NCBI RefSeq assembly: GCF_000341355.1
Contig: NC_020300.1
Location: 1,357,501 to 1,421,500 of the forward strand
Length of the DNA stretch: 64,000 bases
Source: Bartonella australis AUST/NH1
GTDB taxonomy: Bacteria; Pseudomonadota; Alphaproteobacteria; Rhizobiales; Rhizobiaceae
Direction of reading: 5' to 3'
Part shown: piece by piece, positions 11,470-44,288 of the stretch
Layout of the letters: every line of letters starts with the position of its first letter
How positions within the stretch are numbered: the stretch's first letter is position 1
Notes under the pieces: generated by a model
Seen by the model: only the letters and a program-made list of their open reading frames with translations
What the model was told of the DNA's origin: nothing
The model's database searches: none
Program-made: the position numbers and the translations under genes

Positions 11470-11670
11470 TTACCAACAATTTTGCTTGTGGCCAAAGCGG
11501 TCCGTGGCCACAATCCAGCGTGATAATGATGGCTCTATTTGGACGAGGTGGGCGGGCTTATTAACGGCGGGAGGTTTTATCCAACCTGCGCAAGATGGTG
11601 GCGCATTCCTTTGACACCCCACCAAGAGCAAGACAGAGGTGAAAAGGAGAAAGAGACAAAACTTCATCAT
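11470..11670 (-). CDS. Outer-membrane spanin lipoprotein (Rz1-like)
   Basis: Small phage lipoprotein of 66 residues. A signal peptide (FCLFLLFTSVLLLVGC) ends in a lipobox, LVGC, followed by a short proline-containing periplasmic segment (APPSCAGWIKPP). This is the pattern of Rz1 outer-membrane spanins, which join inner-membrane Rz to disrupt the outer membrane during lysis. It starts inside the i-spanin gene in another frame, overlapping it by 110 bases, which is the classic Rz/Rz1 architecture. The ATG at 11670 (or the next codon) has a GAGAAA ribosome site. Last gene of the leftward late operon. Function inferred from topology and arrangement rather than sequence identity. Confidence 0.65.
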   Translation of the reverse strand: MMKFCLFLLFTSVLLLVGCQRNAPPSCAGWIKPPAVNKPAHLVQIEPSLSRWIVATDRFGHKQNCW

Positions 11671-11836
11671 TGATTTTCTCACGATTTTGAAAAGCCATTT
11701 CAGCTTGGACAAGAATTTTTGTACGTTCAGAAGAACGGCCGTAAAAAACACAACACGCTCCAGCAGAGAGAACGAGGATAACCCCTATAAAAGCAGCAAC
11801 GAAGCGCCAACAAAACAAAACAGGCATCGATATCAT
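11561..11836 (-). CDS. Inner-membrane spanin (Rz-like)
   Basis: Protein of 91 residues with one N-terminal membrane helix (about 7-28, WRFVAAFIGVILVLSAG). A helical segment (KILVQAEMAFQNREKIND) and a Cys-containing tail (FHLCLALGGVSKECATILRRL) follow. Its ATG overlaps the stop of the endolysin gene by four bases (ATGA), so the two are translationally coupled. It contains the start of the Rz1-like gene in another frame. Together with the endolysin and the o-spanin it forms a complete Gram-negative lysis cassette apart from a separate holin. It is shorter than lambda Rz (153), so the call rests on position and topology. Confidence 0.6.
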   Translation of the reverse strand: MISMPVLFCWRFVAAFIGVILVLSAGACCVFYGRSSERTKILVQAEMAFQNREKINDEVLSLSPFHLCLALGGVSKECATILRRLDKTSRR

Positions 11837-12486
11837 TCCCTCGTCCGGCGGATATACATCCAAATGCCCATTATTGCGGCTAAAACCATGACAGTAGCTA
11901 AAGCCCACTGCGCAGGGCCATATCCAGTAAAAATTCCTGTTAAACCTGAAAAAGATCCCATAAGTGGTGCTAAAATTTCAACATTTAAAAGAGAATCACT
12001 CTTTGGGGCCTCCACCCCTTGATAATTGGAGGCAACATAAGCTCCCTTAGTCCATAAGCCTGATTCAGCTGAACGCCGATGGACGAGCCCTTGTAAGCGT
12101 TGTCCACCTGCTTTAGTCCATTTTTGCAATTCGGCCGGCACAGCTTCATAATGACCTTTATTAAGCTTTTTTAAGAGTGTAGAATTGCGAAAAGCTTCTG
12201 TTCCGATATTATAGCAAAAGGACACGAGAGCTGTGAATTGCCCATCGGTTAAAGGACAAGAAACCTCCTGTTCAACAACCTTTTCAAATTGTTTTAAATC
12301 GCGGCGCAGAATGGTGTCTGCTTGGCTTTGCGTGATTTTCATACCGTCTTGAACAAAAGGTTCCCCCGCCTTTACTGTATGGCCGTAACCAATTGTCCAA
12401 ACACCGGCGGTATCTTGATAAGCCTGCAGACGGAGGCCTTCCCATTGTTTAATGAGTTCTAATCCTTCTTTTGATATTTTTCGCAT
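11833..12486 (-). CDS. Phage endolysin, GH24 lysozyme with C-terminal membrane helix
   Basis: Peptidoglycan muramidase of the lambdoid/T4 lysozyme family (GH24). The catalytic region (about 1-150) has the conserved Glu in KQWEGLRLQAYQDTAG, the motif VWTIGYGHT, and the family-typical DGQFTALVSFCYNIG. The last 25 residues form a hydrophobic helix (WALATVMVLAAIMGIWMYIRR), so the enzyme may be tethered to the inner membrane or may double as a holin-like element; no stand-alone holin is seen. The ATG at 12486 has an AGGAT ribosome site; the frame is open further upstream but without a site. Its stop overlaps the i-spanin start. Part of the leftward late operon. Confidence 0.88.
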   Translation of the reverse strand: MRKISKEGLELIKQWEGLRLQAYQDTAGVWTIGYGHTVKAGEPFVQDGMKITQSQADTILRRDLKQFEKVVEQEVSCPLTDGQFTALVSFCYNIGTEAFRNSTLLKKLNKGHYEAVPAELQKWTKAGGQRLQGLVHRRSAESGLWTKGAYVASNYQGVEAPKSDSLLNVEILAPLMGSFSGLTGIFTGYGPAQWALATVMVLAAIMGIWMYIRRTRE

Positions 12487-12591
12487 ATTATTTATCCTAT
12501 AAAAAAGCCCGCCCCTGTGAAATTGACAAGGCAGCGGGACCAATATCGATATTATTTTGTGATGTATCTTAACTTTTGCTTCGAGATCTTT

Positions 12592-12816
12592 TTAAGCTTT
12601 GGTGAGGTTTTTTAATTTTTCCTCAAGGTCGCTCACGCGCTGCAACAATTGAGCATAATCCTGGTTGCGTTTTTTATCTTCACGCTTTGCGTCTTTGCGT
12701 ATTTGATCTAAAAGTCCATTTAAGGGAGCATGCCCCATTTGTCCGCCTGAATAAATAACAATACGAATATGTTCAGGATCACCAATATCAGCAATAGAAA
12801 ATGGAAAAAGTGCCAT
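12592..12816 (-). CDS. Small phage protein with C-terminal coiled coil
   Basis: Protein of 74 residues, not recognised. The start is set by a strong ribosome site (GGGGTGAGAG) before the ATG at 12816. The first half is globular (FSIADIGDPEHIRIVIYSGG). The second half is a charged heptad helix (LLDQIRKDAKREDKKRNQD then LLQRVSDLEEKLKNL) that should form a coiled coil. It lies between the tail fibre and endolysin genes in the late operon. The position and coiled coil would fit a tail or lysis accessory protein; no function can be assigned. Confidence 0.6.
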   Translation of the reverse strand: MALFPFSIADIGDPEHIRIVIYSGGQMGHAPLNGLLDQIRKDAKREDKKRNQDYAQLLQRVSDLEEKLKNLTKA

Positions 12817-13221
12817 TCTCTCACCCCGTTTTTCTTTTATAAATAAAATATTATAGCTATAATTCATTGTCCGCCATTTGTACGGATACGCCTCACCACA
12901 GCCCCTCAAATACCTGCTGTCGCCAACTACTCATTTAGGTAGATTTTGCCGCAAAACTTGAATAACCATTGTGATGACCAAAATGATCGGAAAATGGCTT
13001 AAGCCCCCTTTGCCCACTTTCGCACAGGAGGAACCAAAAGGTGAATAATGCCTCTCTTAATATGTGAGCACTCTTTTCTTCTAGTTTTACCCTTGATCGA
13101 TGATAAAGAAAAAACCGTGTTCTTTTTCTTGAATGAGGCGTTATAAGCAAAATTAGGCGTTCCATAGCCCACCATGACAAATATTTTGAAAACCCTCTAA
13201 TACAGATAGGAGGCTCAGTTT
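12817..13221. other. Spacer between tail fibre and lysis genes
   Basis: About 400 bases with no supported gene. The minus frame 12935-13180 lacks a ribosome site and resembles nothing. The gap could hold a lysis promoter or a lost gene; I see no clear promoter. Confidence 0.35.
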
Positions 13222-14193
13222 TTATACTTTAATTGCGTAAACGACGGCTATATTGACAGGGCGTGTTTCTGGGCCCCCTGTTGCTTTTAATGTCAGTGTG
13301 TGGCTATGTTGTCCTGAAGCACCTGTGAGCTTCTCTTCTCTATTACCACATATATAATCGTGAATACCACCCTGCCCTGTCCATGAGTAATACGGTTTTG
13401 TGGGCTCTAGGTATTTATGTGCATGCCCACCATTTTCACTTATTGTCCCTTGATGGGTATGGGCTTTAAAAGATTCTTCTTGCCTGCTTCCTAAGACACG
13501 CCCTTTATCAAGCCCTCTTTCACTATCCAATCCACGCAAAAACATTCCCCGTAAATCAGGAATATTGAATGTTGTTGTTCCATCGCCTATTCCCCATATC
13601 CCGCCGATAGCGGCAAAAAGGTTCGCATATTCCTCTCGCGAATATTCTTTTCCGTCGCATAAAAGCCAGCCTGTAGGCACATTTTTCATAGCAAAAGTTG
13701 CGATAAAGCCTGACGGAAAAATTTGAGGAAATGTCGGATTTGTCAGACACCACCCATCTTTATCGTCCCCGCCAATGCCCAAATGATAGACGAGTTCGTA
13801 GAGACCACCCTCTTGAATTTCCCCACCAGTTAAGGTTTCTAGGCCATTTTGCGTTGTCTTATAGACGGGTTGAGCCAATAATTGATTCAAAGCGATATTT
13901 GTTTCTCCCCTGTTCGTTCCTTGTGCTTTAAAACGGACAACAATATCGTTTGCATAGGCAGCGATAGGAGACTTCGTAATCAAGCGAATCTCTGTTATAT
14001 CCTCGTAACTATTTGCCACAAATTGCGTATCAATGGCACCGCCATTATCGGAGAGATATTCTCTGAATCGCTGCATCATGGCACGCGCACTATCATTCAC
14101 TGAGCTTGGAGGTTGTCCTTCTGCCCAGTTTATAATTTCGTCGGCGCGGGCATTTTCCGGCGCTATAAGCGACCAATCATAAATTGTACTCAT
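13222..14193 (-). CDS. Phage tail fibre protein with tail-collar domain
   Basis: Receptor-binding or tail tip protein of 323 residues. The N-terminal part (1-60) contains PPSSVNDSARAMMQRFREYL, a region seen in fibre and tail-attachment proteins of many Rhizobiales phages. A phage tail collar domain sits at about 165-225, with GFIATFAMKNVPTGWLLCDG and FNIPDLRGMFLRGLD. The C-terminal part is His-rich (KAHTHQGTISENGGHAH and GQHSHTLTL), as in trimeric fibre tips that bind metal. Its ATG overlaps the stop of the upstream gene (ATGA), so the two are coupled. Frame intact. Confidence 0.85.
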   Translation of the reverse strand: MSTIYDWSLIAPENARADEIINWAEGQPPSSVNDSARAMMQRFREYLSDNGGAIDTQFVANSYEDITEIRLITKSPIAAYANDIVVRFKAQGTNRGETNIALNQLLAQPVYKTTQNGLETLTGGEIQEGGLYELVYHLGIGGDDKDGWCLTNPTFPQIFPSGFIATFAMKNVPTGWLLCDGKEYSREEYANLFAAIGGIWGIGDGTTTFNIPDLRGMFLRGLDSERGLDKGRVLGSRQEESFKAHTHQGTISENGGHAHKYLEPTKPYYSWTGQGGIHDYICGNREEKLTGASGQHSHTLTLKATGGPETRPVNIAVVYAIKV

Positions 14194-15302
14194 AAGATAT
14201 GTCCTTTTTTCAGGAAACCAAGAAAAGAAAAGAGGGCGAAGATGATATTTTTGAGGGATTTGACCTTCTTTATTCTGAAGCCAATTTTGTTATAATCAAC
14301 GTGTAATAATTTTGTTTTTACGTTGACGTAAACAGCCGCGGGGTTCAGACGTACTAAATCTTGGGCCATAACCCCCCGATAGCGTTGAGGGTCGCCTTTG
14401 TAATTAAAGTCGTAAAGGGGGTAGCCATTTTTCTCTCCTACACGCACGACATTTTCTTTTACTCTAGCGTCAGAAAGACCGATCACACCGCCGACTAATC
14501 CAAGGACGCGCTGTAAATCTTGTAAAGGGTCTTTTGTGATTGAAGGTATTGTTTTTGAGTTCTCAGTCTTAGTGCCGTAATTGCCGGCTGCCGTCGTACC
14601 AACCTGCAAGAGTTTTTCCAACCGGTTCCACGCTTGATTATCTTCTTCTGTCCATTTTTCACGATTGGCATCCAGAGCGTGCTGACGATTTGCATCTTGC
14701 ACCATCCCGCCCTGCAAAGCATTTTTCTGAGCATTGCTTTGCCCTTGATAAAAGGCATTCGCCGCATTGACCTGATCGTACAATGAGCGGTCAATCATCT
14801 GATTGGCGTTCATCATATTGCTCACATCCTGATTATATTGTTGAGCCGCTGCTTTTGTTGCTAAAGCACCCAACTCATCGGTTAATACGCCGGTATGAGC
14901 GCCAGATCCATACCGCCCTGCTCCTGCCATTGATTGATTAATAGCGTCAGAAGTTTTACTGAGCGCATTGTTGAGCGCATCGTTGAATTTGTTATTGCTT
15001 CCAATAAAATTTCCCTTCGCCATATTGAGAAGATTATTGTAGCTTTGCGTCGGTGCATTCAGCCCCTGATTAAAAGTGGGGTTATTGTACTGGTTTGCCG
15101 CATTTTTAAGGCCGTTGATGGCGTTTTTTGTTGCATCGCTCAGGTCAGCATGTCGCTCGCCTTGGTAAGCATTCCCACCAATCCCTTGATTATACAAATT
15201 AAGCGCATCAGCGCTTGCTGTTTTTAAATTATTTGCAGCCCACGCAGGTGGGGCATTTGTTTGTGTGACTTTTTGGATTTGTGGCGTTGTTCTTCTGCTC
15301 AT
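14190..15302 (-). CDS. Phage tail or injection protein with C-terminal S74-type chaperone domain
   Basis: Structural protein of 370 residues. The first 240 are Ala/Asn/Gln-rich helices (NQGLNAPTQSYNN, KAAAQQYNQDVSNMMNANQM), as in internal virion or tail proteins of short-tailed phages. Residues about 275-340 match the start and middle of the intramolecular chaperone (peptidase S74) domain: SDARVKENVVRVGEKNG, YRGVMAQDLV and VDYNKIGF. After that point the sequence becomes hydrophobic and basic (KNIIFALFSFLGFLKKG), unlike normal S74 ends, so the 3' end may be frameshifted or truncated. It overlaps genes on both sides by ATGA. Whether self-cleavage is retained cannot be told. Confidence 0.65.
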   Translation of the reverse strand: MSRRTTPQIQKVTQTNAPPAWAANNLKTASADALNLYNQGIGGNAYQGERHADLSDATKNAINGLKNAANQYNNPTFNQGLNAPTQSYNNLLNMAKGNFIGSNNKFNDALNNALSKTSDAINQSMAGAGRYGSGAHTGVLTDELGALATKAAAQQYNQDVSNMMNANQMIDRSLYDQVNAANAFYQGQSNAQKNALQGGMVQDANRQHALDANREKWTEEDNQAWNRLEKLLQVGTTAAGNYGTKTENSKTIPSITKDPLQDLQRVLGLVGGVIGLSDARVKENVVRVGEKNGYPLYDFNYKGDPQRYRGVMAQDLVRLNPAAVYVNVKTKLLHVDYNKIGFRIKKVKSLKNIIFALFSFLGFLKKGHIL

Positions 15303-15757
15303 GGAATGAGAACCTTTCTGTAATGAATGAGGTTAACGGTATGTCCGTGATGGGCGAGCTTTTTGGCCCACCCGGATCTTCCAAGTGTTAGTATTTCATC
15401 GGCGTTGATTGTCCGCGCCCATTCTTCGATCTCATCGACTAATTTAACGAGTTTGAGCCCTCCTTCTCCAGCAAGATCGAGGATGACAACGCGTTTTTTC
15501 CCATTGTGGGTCCTTTCGATTTTAGTGATCCCGAAAGCGCTAAATTGGGTCTTATTTTTTAAAATCAGCCACAATTGTGTTTGTCCGCTGGCAATTTCTG
15601 CAGCGACAGTCGTTAAGCACACATCATCGGGAAACCGCTGAGCATATTTTTGCATAGCGCCATTGAGAGCATCGCGATAGGGTGCCATTTTTTCCTGTGG
15701 CCATTGATCTGTAAGATGAATAGAATAGGTATTTTGATCGTCTTGTTGGCCTGTCAT
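15299..15757 (-). CDS. Phage protein with GNAT-like C-terminal region
   Basis: Protein of 152 residues. The pattern resembles GNAT-fold proteins found beside tail genes of short-tailed phages: a central LWLILKNKTQFSAFGITKIE segment, VVILDLAGEGG, an EWARTINADEI helix, LGRSGWAKKLAHHGH and the closing YRKVL. Such proteins have no established reaction in the virion. Its stop overlaps the next gene's ATG, so it is part of the late operon. The ribosome site is weak. The fold call is by pattern only; function unknown. Confidence 0.55.
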   Translation of the reverse strand: MTGQQDDQNTYSIHLTDQWPQEKMAPYRDALNGAMQKYAQRFPDDVCLTTVAAEIASGQTQLWLILKNKTQFSAFGITKIERTHNGKKRVVILDLAGEGGLKLVKLVDEIEEWARTINADEILTLGRSGWAKKLAHHGHTVNLIHYRKVLIP

Positions 15758-15813
15758 GATTTTGTTTTTTCAGTCTTCCTGATGTTTCTCGTCTTTTCTG
15801 ATCTTTGCTGTGT

Positions 15814-17277
15814 TCATCGCAGGCCAGCAGGTTTCAGCGATACATCAAATCCCGTAGCATGAGACCAAAGAGCTCCTCGAGGAATCCGCAATTTAAAACG
15901 ATAAAACCGCCCCCTTGCGCGGGAATGAATTTGGCCTGTATTACGGGAAGGTTGTCTTTCTGGTAGCCAAACAATTTTCTCTCCGACAGACTGGCGTAAA
16001 CGCACACCCACGGATAAATAAAACTCTTCGCTATTCACTTGAGGCATGATATTTCCCACGCGGGTTATCGTGCCGTTTGTCTGCCCCATCTCTTGAGATG
16101 TGATCACACAGGCCATTGATTCACCAGAAAATGAACCAAGCTTTCCTTCGAAATCAAATGCGCCCAAAACGGGAGCTTCATTTTGCCACGCTTTACTATC
16201 AAGCGAAAACGGCAAATCATCAATGCTTCCTGAAAGCCGATCTAGTCCTTCTAAAGTGTGTCCAGAACAAAAAATGGGCAAGATCATTTTGGTACCGACA
16301 ATCGCTTTTGTCCATTTTTTCAGTCCCCAATCATAAATGAGCAGTGTACGTTCTTTTACATTATTGCCAGCATCCATCATCCAATAAACGCGGTTATAAA
16401 CGCCATCAATAGCAGCCCGCGAAATTGATAAACCGTCGTGGCTCATTTTTTCGCTCATCGTCCGATCGACTTTTTCGAAGCCAATAGGCATGATTTGCCC
16501 ATCATTATTTATTTGGTAAAATCCGCCTTCATCGGCAAAGAAAGCGAGATCACCCCGACAAACAATTGATTCAGAACTTTTCGCGCCACGTTTATCGTGT
16601 ATTTTTTGAAAACTGAAAATAATTTTGGAACCGGGGATGAAGAAGCCCGCATAAATTGCGGAGCGCATAAAAATGATGGGATTCGTTGTTTCCGTCGCGC
16701 CTTGCACGTGTCCACCATCGGGAAAGTCTTGATAATCGCAGCTTTTTTTTCCTACGGTCCAGAATTCAGCATCGTTCAACCCGGACCAATGCACGCGTCG
16801 AGGATATTCTGTTAATTTCATCAGACAGACGAAATCACCCCAAACTCGGACGATTCCGGCCTGTGGTGGATTTCCTCTTAAATTTCTAAAAATGACGTCA
16901 CGCTTAATATCAAGGATTTGAGGTTTATCATTGGCATTAACAGCGATGACATAATCACCAAACAAAGCAAACGACCACGGAGAATCGACATTTGCTAGGT
17001 ATGGTGCGCCCTTTCGACTAATATCTTCCCACGTCATAAGTTCGTTATTGAGCAGGTAAATTTTTTCTCCTGTTCCTGCAATAATAGAGACGCCATTTTT
17101 AGTTCTTACGGCAATAGCGCTTAAAATGGGTGCAGGACAAGGCTCTGATAAAGAACGAAAGCTTGGCATAGGAATATAGGATCCATCTGCAGGCAGCACA
17201 TTAACGAGTTCATCGGTAAATAAGCCGTTGATATCAGCAACGTCGGGCCGATAATCCGCGATTGGAAAAAAAGCCAT
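15814..17277 (-). CDS. Phage tail hub/stabilisation protein (P22 gp10-like)
   Basis: Protein of 487 residues whose repeated short beta segments suggest a propeller, for example VSIIAGTGEKIYLLN, SFALFGDYVIAVNANDKPQI, GDFVCLMKLTEYPRRVHWSG and GDLAFFADEGGFYQI. Size, predicted fold and position two genes from the capsid match the packaged-DNA stabilisation or tail hub proteins of P22-like and related podoviruses. The ATG directly follows the stop of the gp4-like gene. The frame is complete. It is distinct from siphovirus tail proteins, and no tape-measure gene is present, which supports a short-tailed particle. Confidence 0.6.
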   Translation of the reverse strand: MAFFPIADYRPDVADINGLFTDELVNVLPADGSYIPMPSFRSLSEPCPAPILSAIAVRTKNGVSIIAGTGEKIYLLNNELMTWEDISRKGAPYLANVDSPWSFALFGDYVIAVNANDKPQILDIKRDVIFRNLRGNPPQAGIVRVWGDFVCLMKLTEYPRRVHWSGLNDAEFWTVGKKSCDYQDFPDGGHVQGATETTNPIIFMRSAIYAGFFIPGSKIIFSFQKIHDKRGAKSSESIVCRGDLAFFADEGGFYQINNDGQIMPIGFEKVDRTMSEKMSHDGLSISRAAIDGVYNRVYWMMDAGNNVKERTLLIYDWGLKKWTKAIVGTKMILPIFCSGHTLEGLDRLSGSIDDLPFSLDSKAWQNEAPVLGAFDFEGKLGSFSGESMACVITSQEMGQTNGTITRVGNIMPQVNSEEFYLSVGVRLRQSVGEKIVWLPERQPSRNTGQIHSRARGRFYRFKLRIPRGALWSHATGFDVSLKPAGLR

Positions 17278-17976
17278 TTAAAACCCCGTTGCCAGAATGT
17301 TTGAGCAGCCTTTTGCGCGTGATGTTTCGTAGCGCAATGCTTGGAGCTGTTCTTGAAAATCGTTGAAAGAAACAATCGTATATTCAGGATCTTTGAGAAT
17401 ATTTTTATAGAGTTCATATTTTGCGCGGGCTTTAATGAGGTCAAATGCGTGGGTAAACCAAGGATGGTTGTCCTGCATCGAACACTCATCAACTGAAGGA
17501 AAAGGGGTATAAGAGAAATGGACAATGTCAGCATTTTGCGGTGTTGGAAACAGGCCTATTTTTTGATCATCGTAGGTATAAAAAATGGGGATTCCCTGTG
17601 GTGGGCTGTCCTCATATTTTTTTTTCAAAAATTCGGCAGATTTATAGAGAAGGGGTCTCGGTTCTGCGTTATCGTGTTCTAAGAACAAAGACCCGATGGC
17701 AACTCCCACTCCAATTGAGTCATTATCATCTCGCCCATACCAGGTTTTTCCGCTTTGCGTTGTAAATGTGATCTTTCTTTTTTCATTAAAGAAAAAAGGC
17801 TCTCGTTCACATAATCGAAGAGCGGTAAAAATGGCATCTTGAATTTGGACCGTATATTCCGCTGTCGTATCGTCAATTTCGTCTTGAATGAGCATGACCA
17901 TTCGCGCAAAATTTTTGTCCTGTCCTATCTTTTTGAGATCAAAATAATTGGCACCAACGGCCGTCGCAGTTTGCAT
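17278..17976 (-). CDS. Phage head-tail adaptor (P22 gp4-like)
   Basis: Protein of 232 residues. The N-terminal helix region (MVMLIQDEIDDTTAEYTVQIQ, DAIFTALRLCEREPFFFNE) and a beta middle (KITFTTQSGKTWYG) are typical of the adaptor/head-completion proteins that follow the capsid gene in P22-like and N4-gp56-type phage clusters. These form the ring below the portal. An AAAGGGA ribosome site precedes the ATG. The gene is separated from the capsid gene by a 440-base spacer filled with a GC-rich 60-bp tandem repeat. Family assignment is by pattern and position. Confidence 0.6.
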   Translation of the reverse strand: MQTATAVGANYFDLKKIGQDKNFARMVMLIQDEIDDTTAEYTVQIQDAIFTALRLCEREPFFFNEKRKITFTTQSGKTWYGRDDNDSIGVGVAIGSLFLEHDNAEPRPLLYKSAEFLKKKYEDSPPQGIPIFYTYDDQKIGLFPTPQNADIVHFSYTPFPSVDECSMQDNHPWFTHAFDLIKARAKYELYKNILKDPEYTIVSFNDFQEQLQALRYETSRAKGCSNILATGF

Positions 17977-18417: not shown

Positions 18418-19536
18418 TTAAGCGGGTTCTCCGTAAGTTGGGATGACGATTGTTGCAAAATCTTGAGCCCCTTGCGCATCACCCGGCGCACAGAAACGTG
18501 CTTTTTTCATGCCAATGATGGTTTTCGCGGCCACACCAAATTCGCGTTCATAATCAAAGAGCTCTTCGACCAATTTATAGCGTGTTGCCTCCCGGTCTTT
18601 ACCAAAAGCGATAACAGCACTTTGCGCACCAAGCAAAACAGCACGGCGAACATTTTTAACGATATTTTTTGATTTTCCTGATTCCACACCTTCTGTTACA
18701 TGTTCTGTTTCTCGTAAGATCACCCCATTATACATACCCAGTGACCCGCTATAGATTGGATTTTTGGAGCGGCTTCCGTTATAAATCGCTTTAGTAATAT
18801 CCAGCCATTGACCGGCTTCTGTATTGGTCCGCAATTGCGTAACTTGTGTTGGGTGGAGATAAAGCACATAAACACTTTCGCCATCGACACGCACGGGTCT
18901 GATTTTTGGATTAGCCAGTTTAGCGCGCTCGACTGCTTTATCGATTAATGTGAGATTGAATACATCATTGGCTTCCAATTTTTCATCAGCTTTTTTTCCA
19001 TTTGGATATACCACGCGTTTATCGGTCGGTGGCGTTGGTTCATTGAATCCGTAATGAACAGGTTTTATGGTAATTGTTCTACCTTCAAAATTGATTGTTT
19101 CTGCCGTATATCCGCAAACTTGCATAAAGAACATCATGCTTAAGCGATCAGCATACCAATCGACCAAGCCATTTTTGGCTTCCGTGCGCAGATTATGCAA
19201 GACACGCTGTTGATCGATTGTTCCTTCATTTTTGACACGTACAGCATGAACGAGTTCATTAATGACTAGGCGATCTGTTAAGAATTGTAGAGCTTCTTCC
19301 TTCCCTTCAAGAGCCTGTCCTTCCGTGATTCCATCGCCAAATAACTGCACACGCAAACCAAAAGTCATGGTATCACCACTTGCTTTATTGGTTTCGTCTT
19401 TCAACTGTATAATGCTATTGGAATCTTTTCCGATCAAAGATGCGATAGGAATTGATTTTGAGACTTCTTGATTGAGTAATTTGGACCATGCGCGCACAGC
19501 CATTGGATCATTGATTCCGACACGAGTTTCGGTCAT
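18418..19536 (-). CDS. Major capsid protein, N4-gp56 family
   Basis: Coat protein of the icosahedral head, 372 residues. Recognised from the family opening (INDPMAVRAWSKLLNQEV then LIGKDSNSIIQLKDET), the segment GDTMTFGLRVQLFGDG, HAVRVKNEGTIDQQRVLHNL, and the later VYVLYLHPTQVTQLRTNTEAG. The fold should be HK97-like. An AGAGGAAG ribosome site precedes the ATG. It follows the scaffold gene and precedes the head-tail adaptor, the standard morphogenesis order. The frame is intact, and no sign of decay is seen. Confidence 0.85.
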   Translation of the reverse strand: MTETRVGINDPMAVRAWSKLLNQEVSKSIPIASLIGKDSNSIIQLKDETNKASGDTMTFGLRVQLFGDGITEGQALEGKEEALQFLTDRLVINELVHAVRVKNEGTIDQQRVLHNLRTEAKNGLVDWYADRLSMMFFMQVCGYTAETINFEGRTITIKPVHYGFNEPTPPTDKRVVYPNGKKADEKLEANDVFNLTLIDKAVERAKLANPKIRPVRVDGESVYVLYLHPTQVTQLRTNTEAGQWLDITKAIYNGSRSKNPIYSGSLGMYNGVILRETEHVTEGVESGKSKNIVKNVRRAVLLGAQSAVIAFGKDREATRYKLVEELFDYEREFGVAAKTIIGMKKARFCAPGDAQGAQDFATIVIPTYGEPA

Positions 19537-20518: not shown

Positions 20519-20566
20519 TGTGTTGGCCTTTTCTTTCTCAGACAATAAAGGGTTATTTTCTTAAAT

Positions 20567-23757: not shown

Positions 23758-23826
23758 AGAATGTCTCCGCATTTTCTCGTCAATATCTAGTCCAGTAACG
23801 GCAGACACCGGCGTAAAATTATATCT

Positions 23827-37552: not shown

Positions 37553-37627
<75 letters not shown>

Positions 37628-37724: not shown

Positions 37725-38360
37725 TTATTGTTCTCTCATCAATTTTCTATCAGTATTTTTAATTTGGTGGACCATGATATTCAGAGCCTCATTAAAGCGA
37801 TTAATTTCAAATTCAAGCTTACGAATATAGGCTTCATCACGGTAAGCACGCTTAATCAAGGGGGGCATATCTGGCCAATAAAGCATCAAATCTACCCATT
37901 CACGTTGTGCGATCCACAATCCCCCTTGGCATTGAGCCTTATGTTCAGCCGGAAAACTTTTTTGGTAAAAATGAGGGATCAAAATTTCGGGTTTTTTCGT
38001 TTTAATTTCCAACAACCCATTTTCTCCGATAAAAGCATCCGGGGAAAAACCTTTCATGCGATCATCGGTGAGAACAAAACCGATAGATTTTGGCTCTACC
38101 TGGGTGAGGACTCCGTAGAGTTGGCGCGCGGTTGGTTCTAATTCTGTTCCGCGGCGCATAGAGGGAGTTATCGCCTCTTCGACGGGTTTTCCTGTGATTC
38201 TTTCTCCAGCGAGTTTCATCATAATAGATTGATATTTTTGCGTTTTTTGTCCATCTTTTTTTCGTGCCATAACCATTTCGAACAAAGAAGCGGTAACCAG
38301 ACCATTGCGCGCTTGGCGCCATTCGGGCGTTCCTTGAATACAATCTATAATGATTGGCAT
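37725..38360 (-). CDS. YqaJ-type phage exonuclease/recombinase
   Basis: Lambda-exonuclease-like alkaline nuclease of the YqaJ family, 211 residues. It probably makes single-stranded DNA for phage recombination. Conserved segments are CIQGTPEWRQARNGLVTAS, the acidic RRGTELEPTARQLY, GFSPDAFIGENGLLEIKTKKP (the catalytic D and E-x-K) and HKAQCQGGLWIAQREWVDL. The start at 38360 has a GGAGG site; the longer frame is not needed. It is the last gene of a leftward set with two small phage genes. No Bet or Erf-type annealing protein is visible next to it. Confidence 0.85.
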   Translation of the reverse strand: MPIIIDCIQGTPEWRQARNGLVTASLFEMVMARKKDGQKTQKYQSIMMKLAGERITGKPVEEAITPSMRRGTELEPTARQLYGVLTQVEPKSIGFVLTDDRMKGFSPDAFIGENGLLEIKTKKPEILIPHFYQKSFPAEHKAQCQGGLWIAQREWVDLMLYWPDMPPLIKRAYRDEAYIRKLEFEINRFNEALNIMVHQIKNTDRKLMREQ

Positions 38361-38399
38361 TGTGTTTCCTCCCTCTCCCATTTTTTTAAATTTTTTTAC

Positions 38400-38560
38400 C
38401 ATCAGCACCTCGGCACCGACACCGGCCCTTCGGCACCAGCATCAGCACCTCAGCACCAACATCAGAACCTCAGCACCAACATCAGTACCCCGGCACCAAC
38501 ATCAGCACCTCGGCACCAACATCAGCACCCCGGCGCCGACATCAGCACCCTCAGCGCCTT
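38400..38560. repeat. 20-bp tandem repeat
   Basis: About eight diverged units of the form CAGCACCTCGGCACCAACAT lie directly upstream of the YqaJ gene. The 20-bp period means the frame changes from copy to copy. It is unrelated to other repeats in the window. Confidence 0.88.
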
Positions 38561-38814: not shown

Positions 38815-39204
38815 TCACCACCAACAACCGGACAGTACATCACATGGGCGCAAACGATGCTGCTTTTCATAAGAGCCATAAAGATTATCTTCGTAGTCGC
38901 GCATAATCTTCCGGTCAAGCTGTTTATGATATGCATCACTCTCGAGAATGAACGGCTGAAATTGCCCTATTTGTTCATCTTCTCCGTAGTGTTCCATATA
39001 GAGATGCGCAATTTTTTCGCTGATATCGTCAGCATGAAGAGTTTTTAAATCAAGCCGTAAAAGTCTCTGTACGGTATCACGTCCTTCCACAAGATCCAAA
39101 ACTTCTTCTTCTTGGTCGATAGGCCCGACATAGGCCCCACTATCTTCATCTTCACAATAGACAATAAGAATTTCGTCATCCTTAATAAATGGAATGTGCT
39201 TCAT
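38815..39204 (-). CDS. Acidic phage early protein, unknown
   Basis: Protein of 129 residues, strongly acidic at the start (KDDEILIVYCEDEDSG, IDQEEEVLDLVEGRDTVQRL). A helical middle and a basic end (DRKIMRDYEDNLYGSYEKQH) follow. Not recognised. The ribosome site GGGGGAG is strong. It is the first gene of the leftward early operon, with two operator-like repeats about 70-120 bases upstream, which suggests control by the XRE repressor. DNA mimicry or nuclease inhibition would fit the charge, but there is no direct evidence. Confidence 0.55.
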   Translation of the reverse strand: MKHIPFIKDDEILIVYCEDEDSGAYVGPIDQEEEVLDLVEGRDTVQRLLRLDLKTLHADDISEKIAHLYMEHYGEDEQIGQFQPFILESDAYHKQLDRKIMRDYEDNLYGSYEKQHRLRPCDVLSGCWW

Positions 39205-39272
39205 GATCTCCCCCTTAGATAGTTGATAAACCCAAGCTTTATCTTGACATGATCAAATATAGCGTTAGTCTT

Positions 39273-39322
39273 ATATCCTCTATGGGAGATATGTCAATTG
39301 TTTTATCCTCAATAAAAGATAT
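39273..39322. promoter_or_regulatory. Pair of repressor operators
   Basis: Two 20-bp elements with the same design. The first, 39273-39292, reads ATATCCTC-TATG-GGAGATAT. The second, 39303-39322, reads TTATCCTC-AATA-AAAGATAT. They start exactly 30 bp apart, three helical turns. They sit between the divergent starts of the acidic early gene and the small rightward gene. A related element lies upstream of the repressor gene (39893). Confidence 0.55.
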
Positions 39323-39830: not shown

Positions 39831-40334
39831 AGTTTCACCATATAGCCTGTCTTTCTAAAAAAATACACGTTCTTTTGTAAAATTAACTTGCATTATCCTC
39901 CAAAGAGGAGGTAAATTAATAAAATAAACTTCATTTTAAGAAGGCCTTAACTACATTTTTGAGTCACCAAACAACCCGTCGCCCAATCAAATGCAGGTAA
40001 ATTCCCTGAAAATTCCATGGGTTAAAACCCATCTATCTCCGATATCGCGCCACTCATCCTTTGCTGTCTACACAACCTAAAATTGCCTATACAGGCAAAC
40101 ACAGTCAATTAGTAGATTTAATTAAGGAAAACTGAAAAACAAAATCATTCAACAGAACAAAACGACACAAACCAGAAACATTTTACCAAATGGTAAACTT
40201 CGACTGAATGTCCGCAAATCTGTGCGGGCACTGTTTTAGATTTTTCCCACGCAGCAGCCAGGAGTTCTCCCGAGCAGCAGTCGGAAGTTCTCTTGCGTAG
40301 TAGTAGGAAGCATCACGAGAAAGCCGATGACACT
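39831..40334. promoter_or_regulatory. Early control region with three operator-like palindromes
   Basis: This gap between the repressor and the replication genes holds three inverted repeats. One at 39893-39914 (TTATCCTC...GGAGG, related to the 39273 operators) has perfect arms CCTCC/GGAGG. A second at 40083-40098 is TTGCCT-ATAC-AGGCAA. A third at 40182-40197 is TTTACC-AAAT-GGTAAA. The last two share a 6-4-6 layout. Three diverged 22-bp copies of GCAGCAGNC(A/G)GGAGTTCTC lie at 40249-40317 before the DUF1376 gene. Confidence 0.5.
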
Positions 40335-41393
40335 ATGATACAAAATCAAAAACCATCTCTTCTTAGCCCAGCATCTGTTAGTCAAGCCTCTCCTAATTAT
40401 GAATCATCCTTACTTCCTTATGTTTGTTGGTATCAGAATGATTTTCTAGGCGGAGTCCGCGGAATGCGGGCTCATGAAATTGGTATTTATACAATTTTAT
40501 TGAACGAAATTTATGCGCGCGGGCGCCCTTTAGATTTATCGAAGGAACGCTTAGCACGCCTTTGTGGTTGTGATAAGCGGACATTTGTGAGTGCTTTAGA
40601 TATGCTCATTGCGGAAGGTAAGATTTTAAATTTAGCGAGCGGTTTATGGAATCAAAGATGCGAAAATGTGTTTCAAGAGCGAGAAAAATTGCTTGAGCAA
40701 AAATCGTTTGCTGGTCGCTCTTCTGCACAAAAACGTAAAAAAATCAATGCTCAGGTTCAACATCTGCCTGACGAATATCCAAGAAGTGATGAACGTAACT
40801 CAGAAGCTCAAAAGAGAGAAGAAAAAGAAACACCTAATGGTGTTTTACAAAAGAATACACTCCCCGGCTTGAAAAAAGGAACTTTTTTTGGAGAAAGAGT
40901 TGAAAATATCCCATCTCAAGGAACTACCACTGAAGAGGATCCGAAAGGCCGCACCTCCTCCTGCACAGAGACAGGAGAACAAACTGTCACAAGCTTGAAG
41001 GGAGAGCGCCTTCCTTCTAATTGGACAGCAGATCTTCACGCAGCAATTTCAGAAGGCTTGAGCGAAGAACAAGCGCGTTGGCAGGAAAAGAAGTTTCGTG
41101 ATTATTGGCGCGCGAAAAGTGGCAAAGAAGCCCTGAAAATGGATTGGCAAGCCACGTGGCGCAATTGGTTCCGCCGTGAAATTGAGCGTCTAAAAGAGAA
41201 CCGCGAAAGACTTGCTGCTCTTTCTTCTCGTCCTGATACATCCTCTAGAGCCTCAAGCGAAGAGGATCTTTACTGCAGCCTCATTAATTATCAAGTGAAT
41301 GAAAAAGACCCTGCAATGAAAGCAACTCATCCAGGCCTCATCAATGATCCATCAATGAAAGGAAATTCCACCCGAGCCTCATCAATGATCTAG
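40335..41393 (+). CDS. Phage replication initiator, DUF1376 N-terminal domain
   Basis: Replication protein of about 352 residues. The N-terminal domain (about 25-115) is DUF1376: YVCWYQNDFLGGVRGMRAHE, IGIYTILLNEIYARG and LARLCGCDKRTFVSALD, a winged-helix DNA-binding fold. The middle is charged and disordered. The C-terminal part (KKFRDYWRAKSGKEALKMDW, QATWRNWFRREIERL) resembles the end of lambda O/DnaT-like replication proteins. ATG at 40335 is chosen over an upstream TTG. Four iteron-like repeats lie at and just past the 3' end of this gene, as lambda ori lies inside O. It precedes the primase-helicase gene by about 50 bases, with which it should act. Confidence 0.75.
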   Translation: MIQNQKPSLLSPASVSQASPNYESSLLPYVCWYQNDFLGGVRGMRAHEIGIYTILLNEIYARGRPLDLSKERLARLCGCDKRTFVSALDMLIAEGKILNLASGLWNQRCENVFQEREKLLEQKSFAGRSSAQKRKKINAQVQHLPDEYPRSDERNSEAQKREEKETPNGVLQKNTLPGLKKGTFFGERVENIPSQGTTTEEDPKGRTSSCTETGEQTVTSLKGERLPSNWTADLHAAISEGLSEEQARWQEKKFRDYWRAKSGKEALKMDWQATWRNWFRREIERLKENRERLAALSSRPDTSSRASSEEDLYCSLINYQVNEKDPAMKATHPGLINDPSMKGNSTRASSMI

Positions 41394-41437
41394 TCGATGA
41401 TAAAGCCCTCCATCAAAGCATCATCAATGATTAAGTG
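41278..41437. repeat. Iteron-like repeats in and after the initiator gene
   Basis: The motif GC(C/A)TCAT(C/T)AAT(G/T)AT occurs four times, at 41278, 41335, 41376 and 41418 (spacings 57, 41 and 42). Each is followed by related ATCAATGA words. The first three lie in the coding end of the DUF1376 gene; the last ends just before the next start. A within-gene origin like lambda ori is possible. Confidence 0.5.
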
Positions 41438-41443
41438 AGTGAA

Positions 41444-43285
41444 ATGAGCACGATTTTTGAGATAAAACAAAAACTTTCGTCCCAAGCTGGATCAATCGCA
41501 GAAATGCTTCTTCCTCAGGGGCAAAAACGTGGTAATTCTTGGGTTGTAGGCAGCACGCAAGGCGAAGCGGGCCAAAGCTTATCGGTCTGTTTAAAAGGCC
41601 AAAAATCAGGTCTTTGGCATGATTTTGCAGAAGGAAGTGGTGGTGATCTTTTAGACCTGTGGTGCGCTGTTAAAGGGATCAGTCTTTCTCAGGCCTTGGA
41701 TGAAGCACGCGCTTATCTTAATCTTGAGCGTCCTAAACCTTTCATGGCGCCACGCCGTCATTATCGCCCCCCACCGGTTCCTACGGGGGACGAACCCCAC
41801 AATTTAGTAAAAACCTATTTGCATAAAGAGCGTCATATCCCTCTTGAGATTTTAAAGCGTTACCGCATCAAAGAAAAGGGAAATTCAATTATTTTTCCGT
41901 TTTACAAGCCGGATGGTACTCTTGCTTTAGTGAAAGAACGACTAGCTGAAGCAGGAGCAAAAGCCAAACCCACAGCCTCACAATGCGAGCCGATTTTGTT
42001 TGGCTGGCAAGCTCTTTCCTCAAAGGACCGTGAACTTGTCATTACCGAAGGTGAAATTGATGCACTTTCGCTGGCTGCTTATGGGTATGCAGCAGTATCA
42101 ATTCCCTTTGGGGGAGGCAGTGGTGGTAAACAAAATTGGATTGAAAATGAATTTGACCATTTAGAAGCTTTTGAGAAAATTTTTTTAGCAACAGATATGG
42201 ATACGCCTGGTGAATTAGCGGCTATTGAGATTGCTAATCGGCTTGGTCGTCACCGTTGTTATCGTGTCCGCCTGCCTTATAAGGATGCCAATGACTGTTT
42301 AAAAGCGGGTCTTGAGGATTCAGTCTTATCGGAAGCTTTTTCACAAGCAAAAAGCTTTGCTCCAGAAGGATTACACAAAGCTTCAGACTACAGAGATAAA
42401 GTCATTTCGCTGTTTTGGCCCGCTCCTGAACAGCATCTTGGCTACACGGTTCCTTATTCTAAACTGAACGGAAAGCTTTATTTTCGCCCAGCAGAATTGA
42501 CACTCTGGAGTGGTGCAAGTGGTGCAGGTAAAAGCCAGCTTTTATCGGACTGCATTCCGCATTGGATTGCACAAAAAAGCCGTCTTTGTTTAGCTTCCTT
42601 AGAGATGAAAGGAGAGCAATCCTTACGTCGTTTAATCAAGCAAACAGGAGGACGTGAACAACCGACGCAAGAGATGATTAATCGTGTTTTGGATTTCTTA
42701 GATAATGGCCTTCTCCTTTATGAGCACGTTGGCACATCGAATGTTGATACCTTACTTGATGTTTTTGACTATTGCCGTGCAAAATATGGCTGTGATCAAT
42801 TTATCATTGATAGTTTGATGCGCCTTGGCATTGCTTCGGATGATTATACAGGCCAAGAACAAGCTGTTTATAAGATGGTTGACTGGGCAGTTTTAAACGC
42901 CGTGCACATTCATCTCGTCGCGCATGCTCGCAAAAGTAATCTTGATAAAGAGGTTCCCGGCACTGAAGATATTAAAGGTACCTCAGAAATCGGTGCCAAT
43001 GCGTTTAACATTATCACCATCTGGCGCAATCGCTCTTTAGAGGATAAAATTTTTTCAGCGCACCTACCGGAAGAAAAAGCGCGTTTAACAGAGCGCCCGG
43101 GAGTAATTATGAATATCGCCAAACAACGTTCAGGTGATTTTGAAGGAAAAATTGGTCTTTGGTTTGACCCCAAAACTTACCGTTATCGTTGTTCGTCTGA
43201 ACATACGCTCCGGCCACGACGCTATATTGAGCGAGAACATAAAAGAGACAGTGTCCCAAACCACGCGGCCACAGCATATGCATAA
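41444..43285 (+). CDS. Phage bifunctional primase-helicase
   Basis: T7 gp4-like protein of 613 residues that makes primers and unwinds DNA. The N-terminal part has a short primase region (KGQKSGLWHDFAEGSGGDLL). A TOPRIM domain at about 180-290 follows, with VITEGEIDALSLAAYG and FLATDMDTPGELAAIEIA. The helicase starts near 330, with Walker A LWSGASGAGKSQLLSD, LCLASLEMKGEQSLRRLI and the DnaB-type FIIDSLMRLG, plus an HLVAHARKSN segment. No classical four-Cys zinc finger is visible at the N-terminus. ATG at 41444 is preferred; a GTG nine bases earlier is possible. Together with the DUF1376 protein it is a full phage replication module. Confidence 0.88.
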   Translation: MSTIFEIKQKLSSQAGSIAEMLLPQGQKRGNSWVVGSTQGEAGQSLSVCLKGQKSGLWHDFAEGSGGDLLDLWCAVKGISLSQALDEARAYLNLERPKPFMAPRRHYRPPPVPTGDEPHNLVKTYLHKERHIPLEILKRYRIKEKGNSIIFPFYKPDGTLALVKERLAEAGAKAKPTASQCEPILFGWQALSSKDRELVITEGEIDALSLAAYGYAAVSIPFGGGSGGKQNWIENEFDHLEAFEKIFLATDMDTPGELAAIEIANRLGRHRCYRVRLPYKDANDCLKAGLEDSVLSEAFSQAKSFAPEGLHKASDYRDKVISLFWPAPEQHLGYTVPYSKLNGKLYFRPAELTLWSGASGAGKSQLLSDCIPHWIAQKSRLCLASLEMKGEQSLRRLIKQTGGREQPTQEMINRVLDFLDNGLLLYEHVGTSNVDTLLDVFDYCRAKYGCDQFIIDSLMRLGIASDDYTGQEQAVYKMVDWAVLNAVHIHLVAHARKSNLDKEVPGTEDIKGTSEIGANAFNIITIWRNRSLEDKIFSAHLPEEKARLTERPGVIMNIAKQRSGDFEGKIGLWFDPKTYRYRCSSEHTLRPRRYIEREHKRDSVPNHAATAYA

Positions 43286-43421
43286 CACTGCCCACAAGCA
43301 AATAGCATAGCCGTACAATACACCTCCCCTGGCGAAACAATGCTGCTTTTGGCACTTCCAATGCCCTTGAGGAAGCATGTTTAAGCACACATAACCTAAT
43401 AATTATTTTTGAGGAGATATT

Positions 43422-44000
43422 ATGACATATCAAAGCAAGAACAAGAAAAACGCAACAGACCACCCCTGCACCCCCTCATTCGATAAGCATCATTCTATTG
43501 GGCATTTACAAGCACAAGAAGTACTCGTTGAAACGAGTAATCCTTATTTTCAACCAACTTACCCAGAAAGCCAGGGGAACCCCCGTACTATTATTGCCGT
43601 TGCCGACGCCCACAGCCGCCCTATCGCGCTTTTATATACAAAAGGCCATATCACCACCGCGCAATATAAAGCAGCGGAGCGCTTTTATCTTTATTGGCGT
43701 CAAAGCCAAGGCGATTCACACATGAGCATTGATCTTACGCGCACGAAAGTTGACGGCGGCGAAGGCCATATACACACGATGGAACGCCGAATAGAAGCGG
43801 CAAACCATTTACAAACAATCAAAGCTGAACTTGGTGTTCTTGGTTATCGTCTTGTTGAACAAGTCGTTGGTTATGGCCAAGCGATTAAAGATCTAAGCCC
43901 ATCGAAACGCAAACAAAATTCTCTCGCAGATCACTTACGGGATTGTTTGGACCTTTTGGCATTTCATTGGAAATATTCAAATCAAAAATACCCCCAATAA
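43422..44000 (+). CDS. Phage protein of unknown role, DUF6456-like
   Basis: Protein of 192 residues. A disordered N-terminus is followed by IIAVADAHSRPIALLYTKGH, then ITTAQYKAAERFYLYWRQSQ, a layout like the DUF6456-type proteins of Rhizobiales and their phages. The C-terminal helices (IEAANHLQTIKAELGVLGYR, LVEQVVGYGQAIKDLS) could bind DNA. A GAGGAG ribosome site lies ahead of the ATG. It is the last gene of the rightward early operon and directly precedes the origin-like region. An antitermination or late-control role is possible but not shown. Family match is by pattern only. Confidence 0.5.
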   Translation: MTYQSKNKKNATDHPCTPSFDKHHSIGHLQAQEVLVETSNPYFQPTYPESQGNPRTIIAVADAHSRPIALLYTKGHITTAQYKAAERFYLYWRQSQGDSHMSIDLTRTKVDGGEGHIHTMERRIEAANHLQTIKAELGVLGYRLVEQVVGYGQAIKDLSPSKRKQNSLADHLRDCLDLLAFHWKYSNQKYPQ

Positions 44001-44116
44001 CAATAAAGGGGGACTACTTTCAGAAAGCCTATTCCTACTCCTAGAAGCTAAAACAAGAATAATCTGACTCTCGCGCACAAAGCAAACCGCAGCACCGATT
44101 AAGCACGTTAAACGAC

Positions 44117-44288
44117 CTGGCTGATCGCGGCCTGTCTGATCATAAGTTATAGCTTAATTGCTTATGATCTGATTGGCCGCACAGACTAGCCAGCTACGAT
44201 AGCAAATTTCGTAGATAGTTTTACGCACCCCTATCTCCCGCACAGCCCTATCTCTCGGATATCCCTATCTCTTACACACCCATATCTC
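44117..44288. other. Origin-like cluster: nested inverted repeats plus four 17-bp iterons
   Basis: Three nested perfect stems: CTGGCT/AGCCAG (44117/44188), GCGGCC/GGCCGC (44127/44175) and GATCATAAG/CTTATGATC (44138/44161). These are followed by CTACGA/TCGTAG (44194/44209). Then CCCTATCTC repeats at 44229, 44246 and 44263 and CCATATCTC at 44280, all spaced exactly 17 bp. AT-rich sequence follows. The layout is typical of iteron-controlled replication origins and lies directly after phage replication genes. Function is inferred. Confidence 0.55.

What the first reader, a model, noticed from the sequence alone, without database searches (positions are those of the whole stretch)
11470..44288. 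Split phage: late genes and replication genes as separate blocks, gene-transfer-agent-like
A complete leftward late block (terminase, portal, scaffold, N4-gp56-type capsid, adaptor, hub, fibres, endolysin, spanins; about 13.4 kb) lies at 11.5-24.9 kb. A replication/regulation block (YqaJ nuclease, XRE repressor, DUF1376 initiator, primase-helicase) lies at 37.7-44.0 kb. Core genes (clpB, infA, purEK, murA and others) occupy the 12 kb between. Neither block has an integrase, and the key motifs look intact, so neither behaves like an ordinary prophage or a decayed one. Established knowledge: Bartonella carries a gene transfer agent (BaGTA) and a separate phage-derived run-off replication (ROR) origin. 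Inference: these two blocks are such a pair, or a related domesticated system.
Basis: partly seen in the sequence, partly recalled or inferred. Interest (0 to 1): 0.85.

Follow-up and report, generated by a model that had tools for sequence, protein, structure and literature searches.

The report
Bartonella gene-transfer particle lacking injection genes
This is the already published gene-transfer system of Bartonella australis, but comparing it with related phages shows that its particle has lost genes of the kind phages use to push DNA through the inner layers of a cell, which would explain why recipient cells must take the DNA up with their own machinery.

Summary
The window lies in a 1,596,490-bp genome, and the genes sit at the coordinates published for the BaGTA and ROR clusters of Bartonella australis (Guy 2013 Table 2). 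The pair itself is known.

I did not find the following in print. The late block is a short-tailed-phage module that matches Rhizobium phage RHph_Y1_10 and Microcystis phage Mae-JY35. Those phages carry two ejection genes and a virion murein hydrolase between the S74 and collar genes. In the window these two genes overlap by 4 bp.

Across 71 genomes, ej2 was found beside 0 of 57 primary mammal-type loci and 62 of 63 secondary, prophage-like loci. Bee-type loci gave 0 of 10, but one bee-type MAG still carries an ejection module at the matching locus, so loss was probably repeated.

Inference: BaGTA keeps the outer ejection protein but lost the periplasmic-tunnel and inner-membrane parts. It would leave DNA in the periplasm, which fits the published need for ComEC/DprA and Tol-Pal in recipients. 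Which phage gave rise to ROR remains open.

The parts
10545..11006 (-). BaGTA-cluster membrane protein (BAnh110810)
   Evidence: published coordinates; homologue found in 7 of 8 primary loci fetched
   Evidence: no Pfam or PHROG hit; homologue in 4 of 8 primary and 2 of 4 bee loci
11833..12543 (-). phage lysozyme (endolysin)
   Evidence: PF00959 1.3e-50; homologue in 4 of 8 primary loci fetched
12592..12909 (-). small late protein (phrog_23103)
   Evidence: similar to RHph_Y1_10 EVB56_085
13222..14193 (-). tail collar fibre
   Evidence: PF07484 1.1e-21
14190..14193 (-). 4-bp overlap of S74 and collar genes: the place where relatives carry ej1, ej2 and a murein hydrolase
14190..15302 (-). S74 protein, first ejection-type protein (phrog_4287 'DNA ejection protein'); C-terminal extension seen in the mammal-type loci fetched
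   Evidence: PF13884; phrog_4287 8.5e-76; extension
15299..15757 (-). conserved late protein (phrog_25629)
   Evidence: 46 percent to RHph_Y1_10
15814..17277 (-). nozzle/hub protein
   Evidence: phrog_3287; 49 percent to RHph_Y1_10
17278..17976 (-). tail adaptor
   Evidence: PF24175
18062..18353 (.). 60-bp tandem array between capsid and adaptor genes
18418..19536 (-). major capsid protein, N4-gp56 type
   Evidence: PF13252 3.7e-74
19679..20545 (-). scaffold-position protein
   Evidence: 31 percent to the gene in the same place in RHph_Y1_10
20567..22429 (-). portal protein, P22 type
   Evidence: PF16510 4.1e-125; start as published
22429..23772 (-). terminase large subunit
   Evidence: PF04466; coordinates as published
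23842..24290 (.). 87-bp tandem array upstream of terL
24571..24900 (-). gene in small-terminase position (phrog_11043)
   Evidence: 43-45 percent to the genes before terL in Mae-JY35 and pCB2047-C
37553..37627 (+). tRNA-Thr(ggt), possible old attachment site of the ROR prophage half
   Evidence: within about 0.04-1.6 kb of the ROR nuclease in 4 of 6 further ROR loci read (L102, L104, L105, L108)
37725..38408 (-). ROR: YqaJ-type exonuclease
   Evidence: PF09588 1.3e-15
38815..39204 (-). ROR: conserved phage protein (phrog_23448)
   Evidence: 38-39 percent to two prophage copies
39273..39322 (.). two weak operator-like palindromes upstream of the 38815-39204 gene
   Evidence: PWM scan; window scores (16.7 and 14.3) are within the range of shuffles (best 17.1), but pairs lie at the same place in L101, L102, L105
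39513..39830 (-). ROR: XRE-type repressor
   Evidence: HTH_3 E 0.007; phrog_8 3.3e-5
39893..39912 (+). operator palindrome (consensus TTATCCTCTAAARAGGATAA) between repressor and initiator
   Evidence: alignment of 7 intergenic regions; window copy has 3 mismatches to a palindromic pattern; genus scan
40293..41393 (+). ROR: DUF1376 initiator
   Evidence: PF07120 6e-14; phrog_3992
41435..43285 (+). ROR: primase-helicase, without the repeat insertion seen in many relatives
   Evidence: phrog_239 3.8e-114
43422..44000 (+). ROR: conserved phage protein (phrog_21451)

Best explanation
The two blocks are the published BaGTA structural locus and the ROR replication locus of Bartonella australis. SHOWN: the late block is a short-tailed-phage head, neck, fibre and lysis module without the two ejection genes and the virion murein hydrolase found at that spot in its relatives; only the first ejection-type protein (S74) is left. 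ROR has the layout of a prophage early module without an integrase. INFERRED: ROR over-replicates the chromosome around it, and the particles package pieces of that DNA after terminase cutting. Because the periplasmic-tunnel and inner-membrane ejection proteins are gone, the particle delivers DNA only as far as the periplasm. The recipient's own envelope machinery (Tol-Pal at division) and competence machinery (ComEC, ComM, ComF, DprA) finish the uptake. Loss of the ejection genes, probably in several lineages, is the step that turned an injector into a gene-transfer agent.
For: Identity. Late block matches RHph_Y1_10 and Mae-JY35 from terL to S74 in the same order, then collar. Gene order in 20 fetched loci: 8 of 8 mammal primary and 4 of 4 bee-type loci without ej1/ej2 hits, 8 of 8 secondary loci with both genes in place: (one ej2 without a BLAST hit there, found). 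Genus count: ej2 within 8 kb at 0 of 57 primary, 0 of 10 bee-type and 62 of 63 secondary loci; S74-to-collar gap -1 to 516 bp at the 56 primary loci with a collar row, 4,174-9,944 bp at the 42 secondary loci with one. Profiles of ej1 and ej2 find nothing at E<=1 in the whole window and 12 loci, but find 4 of 5 loci known to hold such genes at 1e-97 to 1e-286: (three of those four helped to build the profiles; the fifth, KLEP18-1, was missed). Named genomes agree, and Candidatus Tokpelaia also lacks the genes. Bee-type loci carry the C-terminal half of the murein hydrolase as a remnant (37-53 percent, E 8e-41 to 5e-22). ej1-like protein has a phrog_2534 hit 'released from the phage upon host infection', RHph ej2 a phrog_770 hit 'DNA transfer protein'. 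T7/P22 roles (OM pore, periplasmic tunnel, inner-membrane part; all three P22 proteins needed for injection): passages. Recipient needs ComEC, ComM, ComF, DprA and Tol-Pal, 'after the probable periplasmic delivery': passages. ComEC match in 71 of 71 genomes, in one (G010) in two separate frames. B. henselae particles without visible tails: passages.
Against: No particle, uptake or read-depth data were available here. Ejection proteins diverge so fast that a very different copy elsewhere could be missed: the RHph ej2 as query found 0 of 71 genomes where the Bartonella ej2 found 42 of 71, and the ej2-position gene of G057 is not found by my ej2 profile. What is firm is that mammal primary loci have no room for such genes between S74 and collar; of the eight bee-type gaps measured, six are 565-583 bp but two are 2.4 and 5.0 kb, there with short ORFs only (up to 202 aa). 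42 of the 57 genomes with a primary locus also carry an ej2 gene elsewhere, so supply in trans is possible there; in 15 of 57, including B. australis, none was found. One bee-type MAG (G057, 86 percent complete) still carries an ejection module at the matching locus, so the loss is not universal. Structure models of S74 and ej2 were poor (pLDDT 65.5 and 64.6) and matched no solved structure at E<=0.001. The match of S74, ej1 and ej2 to gp7, gp20 and gp16 is by order, size and label only. ROR activity in B. australis itself was not tested.
Confidence: 0.7

Rival explanations
1. Ordinary published BaGTA plus ROR; the missing ejection genes have no functional meaning because another protein (the extended S74 protein or unrelated bgt genes) forms the full conduit, and recipient competence genes act only after cytoplasmic entry.
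For: S74 is kept under purifying selection (dN/dS 0.109) and has a C-terminal extension in the mammal-type copies compared (window plus 8 loci), absent in the 4 bee, 8 secondary and 2 phage copies compared. A screen named 29 BaGTA genes over 79 kb (passage), whose functions I could not read.
Against: In P22 all three ejection proteins are needed for injection (passage). ComEC is an inner-membrane DNA uptake channel (recalled), so its requirement points to periplasmic DNA.
Confidence: 0.2
2. Ejection proteins are supplied in trans by secondary prophage clusters in the same cell.
For: 42 of the 57 genomes with a primary locus carry an ej2 gene elsewhere.
Against: In 15 of 57 none was found, B. 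australis among them. All 29 genes found by the published screen lie within 79 kb (passage); in G022, the 1,931,047-bp genome that I recall as B. henselae, the ej2 gene lies about 0.6 Mb from the primary locus.
Confidence: 0.08
3. BaGTA lost the ejection genes once in the ancestor, and the secondary prophages and G057 regained them from phages: a gene-transfer agent turned back into a phage.
For: Trees place secondary clusters (with genes) as sister of primary BaGTA (without), nested inside bee and Tokpelaia loci (without). The secondary third gene lacks the GP[ST]xxQ tail in 8 of 8.
Against: G057 holds an ejection module at the matching bee locus, with an ej1 closest to viral-collection contigs that group with Rhizobiales prophages and a hydrolase domain of the same type as the secondary clusters, which fits plain inheritance and repeated loss. 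Divergence of ej genes cannot separate the two.
Confidence: 0.2
4. The blocks are decaying remnants of one recent prophage.
For: No integrase; intergenic tandem arrays.
Against: S74 homologues in 57 of 71 genomes above 60 percent identity, low dN/dS, published conservation and constraint.
Confidence: 0.01

Closest known systems
BaGTA (Bartogtaviriformidae) and ROR of Bartonella australis, Guy et al. 2013 (PMC3610622)
   Same: Same genes at the same coordinates.
   Different: Nothing in the locus. The absence of ejection genes relative to sister phages was not found in the papers I could search.
Rhizobium phage RHph_Y1_10 and Microcystis phage Mae-JY35 (short-tailed type by gene content)
   Same: Same late-gene order from terL to S74, for example portal 58 and 47 percent, nozzle 49 and 47 percent.
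   Different: They carry ej1, ej2 and a murein hydrolase between S74 and collar.
Secondary 'BaGTA-like' clusters of other Bartonella
   Same: terL 72-74 percent to the primary locus in the 8 fetched; same gene order.
   Different: They keep ej1, ej2 and a transglycosylase (ej2 at 62 of 63). In two of three upstream regions read they have an integrase and early genes, so are prophages.
RcGTA of Rhodobacter
   Same: A gene-transfer agent with recipient uptake by competence genes (recalled).
   Different: Very distant terminase (14-20 percent); published as an independent origin (passage).
P22 and T7 ejection systems
   Same: Ordered set of three ejection proteins; in P22 the first is conserved and the others fast-evolving (passages).
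   Different: BaGTA keeps only the first.

Membership tests
BaGTA (Bartonella gene transfer agent) | Published structural gene cluster at conserved chromosomal place | tested here: met
   coordinates equal to Guy 2013 Table 2
BaGTA (Bartonella gene transfer agent) | TerL and capsid of BaGTA type, found across the genus | tested here: met
   TerL match in 70 of 71 genomes, 57 of them with one at 86 percent or more counting B. australis itself; capsid PF13252
BaGTA (Bartonella gene transfer agent) | Purifying selection | tested here: met
   dN/dS 0.057-0.34 for 15 BaGTA and ROR genes in one pairwise comparison, dS near saturation
BaGTA (Bartonella gene transfer agent) | Packages about 14 kb of host DNA and transfers it | not testable with these tools
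   experiment; transfer demonstrated only for B. henselae per a passage
ROR (run-off replication locus) | Exonuclease, conserved protein, initiator and helicase in published order, near BaGTA (published median 32 kb, maximum 91 kb) | tested here: met
   distance here about 13 kb
ROR (run-off replication locus) | Amplification peak at this locus | not testable with these tools
   needs read depth; published for B. grahamii (passage)
Complete short-tailed phage virion module | Head, portal, adaptor, nozzle, fibre and lysis genes | tested here: met
Complete short-tailed phage virion module | Full set of three ejection proteins | tested here: not met
   only the first was found in the window and no ej1 or ej2 in the genome
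Integrated prophage | Integrase and attachment sites | tested here: not met
   no PF00589 in the window; no repeat of the tRNA-Thr 3' end among repeats of 14 nt or more in 37.5-46.5 kb

The most novel reading that the evidence does not exclude
Domestication of a short-tailed phage into a gene-transfer agent works by deleting the trans-periplasmic and inner-membrane ejection proteins and the virion murein hydrolase, several times independently in Bartonellaceae. The particle becomes a periplasmic DNA dropper, and delivery is handed to the recipient's division-site envelope machinery and ComEC. This restricts transfer to growing kin and makes the agent unable to re-infect as a phage.
Probability: 0.5. 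Interest if true: 0.75.

Novelty: already known. Interest (0 to 1): 0.5.

Why it matters
The pair of loci is a published case, so the finding as handed over adds little. The missing ejection genes give a structural reason for the published need for ComEC, DprA and Tol-Pal in recipients. They also offer a simple genomic mark that separates gene-transfer loci from their sister prophages in this family, and a test case (G057 against G056) in which presence and loss can be compared between close relatives.

Tried and rejected
Rejected: recent or decaying prophage (conservation; dN/dS). Not shown: one parent phage for both blocks, since the late-block phages compared lack ROR genes.

Led nowhere: solved-structure searches with profiles of ej2, S74 and ej1 (nothing at E<0.1); structure models and fold searches. 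The viral structure library gave 24 matches to the ej2 model at E<=1e-3, none with a functional name except two that name a domain. A search for a ROR-type operator in front of the late block found none that beats shuffles: matches at 13,087 and 25,671 score 12.5 and 14.0 against shuffle maxima up to 17.1. Of eight operator matches outside ROR that I read, four lie beside a phrog_15385 gene right of ROR and four beside HigA-like genes, three of them with baseplate-type phage genes in view, so the 43 genomes are not all ROR sites. The S74 C-terminal extension was not traced to the hydrolase tail (compared by eye).

Revised on the way: I first leaned to one loss plus a regain. The G057 locus moved me to repeated loss. 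The divergence control showed that ej identity cannot decide.

'Bartonella + gene transfer agent + ejection protein' gave 0 papers, and with 'podoviridae' and 'injection' 0. Tamarit 2018 (seen only as cited in other papers) was not looked up; Quebatte 2017 is not held. Either may mention the point. Papers read: PMC3610622 passages and two sections; PMC6899734 passages and one section; PMC9662315, PMC2697382, PMC8954989, PMC10883804 and PMC6044324 passages only. The others were seen in search listings only.

All three listings were cut by the tool ('more matches are not listed'). One primary locus (G018) had no collar row, but the named copy L143 shows a collar 665 nt on. In one search one genome (G037, broken frame) was left out. 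In one search three third genes (L177, L179, L210) were picked wrongly and say nothing about the tail motif. Locus L284 was fetched and not analysed.
Full report
WHAT IT IS. The window lies at 1,357,501-1,421,500 of a single-contig genome of 1,596,490 bp. Guy et al. 2013 (PMC3610622, Table 2, read) list the BaGTA genes of Bartonella australis at 1,368,045-1,382,400 and the ROR genes at 1,395,225-1,398,893. Subtracting 1,357,500 gives window 10,545-24,900 and 37,725-41,393. The stop ends of the genes agree base for base with the ORFs; some start codons differ (portal, terminase, exonuclease, initiator and others). The species name is therefore tied by coordinates, not by a name in the tool. The finding is the published BaGTA and ROR pair of this species.

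THE OBSERVATION. Pfam and PHROG hits confirm the late block and the replication block and core genes between them. There is no integrase in the window; the four PF00589 hits of the genome lie elsewhere. Pairwise dN/dS is 0.057-0.34 for 15 genes, in line with the published constraint.

WHERE THE LATE BLOCK COMES FROM. Its closest phage records by terminase and portal include Rhizobium phage RHph_Y1_10, Microcystis phage Mae-JY35 and Paracoccus phage KLEP18-1. RHph_Y1_10 and Mae-JY35 match from terL to S74 in the same order, then the collar. I found no long-tail genes (tube, tape measure, sheath) among the hits of the window's late genes, so a short tail is predicted. This fits passages in Berglund 2009 and in the viriform paper: B. 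henselae particles without visible or with short tails, and in B. grahamii two kinds of particle, one of them from an active separate prophage.

THE MISSING GENES. In those phages two large ejection genes (ej1, ej2) and a murein hydrolase lie between the S74 gene and the collar gene. In B. australis the S74 and collar genes overlap by 4 bp. In 20 fetched Bartonella loci, 8 of 8 mammal-type primary loci and 4 of 4 bee-type loci show no ej1/ej2, and 8 of 8 secondary loci have both (with for one). Over 71 genomes, from 130 of 150 listed S74 rows, ej2 lies within 8 kb downstream at 0 of 57 primary, 0 of 10 bee-type and 62 of 63 secondary loci. Of 80 named loci and 80 viral-collection loci scanned, the 47 BaGTA-type loci (62 percent identity or more) all show a collar 80-665 nt on and no ej1, ej2 or hydrolase; some end soon after the collar, and they overlap in species with the 57 genomes. 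The Candidatus Tokpelaia locus L180 and one viral-collection contig (L213) also lack the genes, while Ochrobactrum chromiisoli, a Hyphomicrobiales MAG and a Rhizobiales genome have ej1 and ej2. Profiles built from relatives find no ej1 or ej2 anywhere in the window, while finding four of five loci that hold such genes. B. australis as a whole gives none.

LOSS, NOT GAIN. In the four bee-type loci read, a 131-153-aa protein sits just before the collar. It is the C-terminal half of the hydrolase, without the catalytic domain (37-53 percent over 132-144 columns, E 8e-41 to 5e-22). The full version is found in G057, a bee-type MAG of 86 percent completeness. Its contig starts in the last 66 nt of S74 (94 percent to G056), then holds ej1, an ej2-position gene without a profile hit, the hydrolase and a collar 84 percent identical to that of G056. 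A gene further right is homologous to a gene right of the locus in Bartonella choladocola L169. So the matching locus still holds the module in one lineage and has lost it in its sister. With the trees this favours several losses. One loss with regains remains possible, because ejection proteins diverge too fast to tell.

HOW IT MOST LIKELY WORKS. By order and size, S74, ej1 and ej2 resemble gp7, gp20 and gp16 of P22 (outer, periplasmic tunnel, inner membrane). That is an inference from order, size, PHROG labels and pattern of divergence, since no structure match was found. P22 needs all three for DNA injection (passage). BaGTA would therefore stop at the periplasm. [quoted passage not shown] A ComEC match is present in 71 of 71 genomes, in G010 split over two frames. 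The lost hydrolase may also explain the tie to dividing cells; that is a guess. Supply of ejection proteins in trans is not possible in 15 of 57 primary genomes, as far as sequence shows.

THE REPLICATION BLOCK. ROR has the layout of a prophage early region. Two Bartonella prophages show integrase, exonuclease, the c38815-like gene and DUF1376 initiator upstream of full late genes; a third secondary cluster (G022) showed none of these in the 20 kb read. ROR starts 97 bp from a tRNA-Thr, where an integrase would be expected; the tRNA lies near ROR in four of six further ROR loci read, but no second copy of its end was found. A palindrome in the repressor-initiator gap is conserved in seven loci and a pattern of it occurs with at most one mismatch in 43 of 71 genomes, with 0 matches to the reversed control pattern; some of those matches are not at ROR. 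The window copy differs by 3 bases. Weaker copies precede the c38815 gene. None that beats shuffles precedes the late block, so direct control of BaGTA by this repressor is not supported.

VERDICT. Observation confirmed, interpretation supported, system already known. The absence of ejection genes with its internal control is the part worth following. I did not find it in print, but two of the most relevant papers were not read here.

Noticed in passing
window 41435-43285 and homologues in L043-L060: The ROR primase-helicase carries an insertion between its N-terminal domain and Toprim in 42 genomes: 30-1,638 bp, a multiple of 3 in 40 of 42, one open frame in 39 of 42. The seven inserts read are Ser/Thr/Asn/His/Pro-rich and mostly repetitive. 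B. australis and 11 other genomes match without it.
   Followed up: partly
window 18062-18353, 23842-24290, 28264-28457, 38400-38549, 44822-45352: Several tandem arrays with periods of 20-152 bp lie in and around the BaGTA and ROR loci. Whether they are denser here than elsewhere in the genome was not tested.
   Followed up: no
L269 2570-3118; L281, L282: A basic 'KKRGRPR' protein family (phrog_15385) is found in 63 of 71 genomes, often in several copies: in the cases looked at about 1 kb before a secondary terL gene, and in many genomes a copy some 4-35 kb to the right of ROR. B. australis has two copies, both near prophage remnants. A candidate late regulator.
   Followed up: partly
G000 260-271 kb and 1.21-1.22 Mb (L095, L096): B. 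australis carries two prophage remnants with integrase and exonuclease, one also with a weak DUF1376-gene match, and no second terminase.
   Followed up: partly
window 54095-63997: An ExbB/TolQ-type gene, glmM-like, ftsH and tilS-like genes lie right of ROR; 62527-63039 is probably pal (gene order recalled, not tested). So Tol-Pal, needed by recipients, may be encoded within 25 kb of the ROR origin.
   Followed up: no
window 14190-14290 (S74 C-terminus): In the mammal-type loci fetched the S74 protein has a C-terminal extension of about 25-40 residues, partly hydrophobic, absent from the bee, secondary and phage copies compared.
   Followed up: partly
L077, L078, L079, L081: Four of the eight primary loci fetched show no lysozyme homologue in the stretch read, and two (L077, L079) a shortened collar frame, so the lysis and fibre end of the locus varies between species.
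   Followed up: no
G010 comEC, 1188254-1189116: In G010 the ComEC match falls in two separate open frames: a broken gene or a sequencing error in a genome with a primary BaGTA locus.
   Followed up: no
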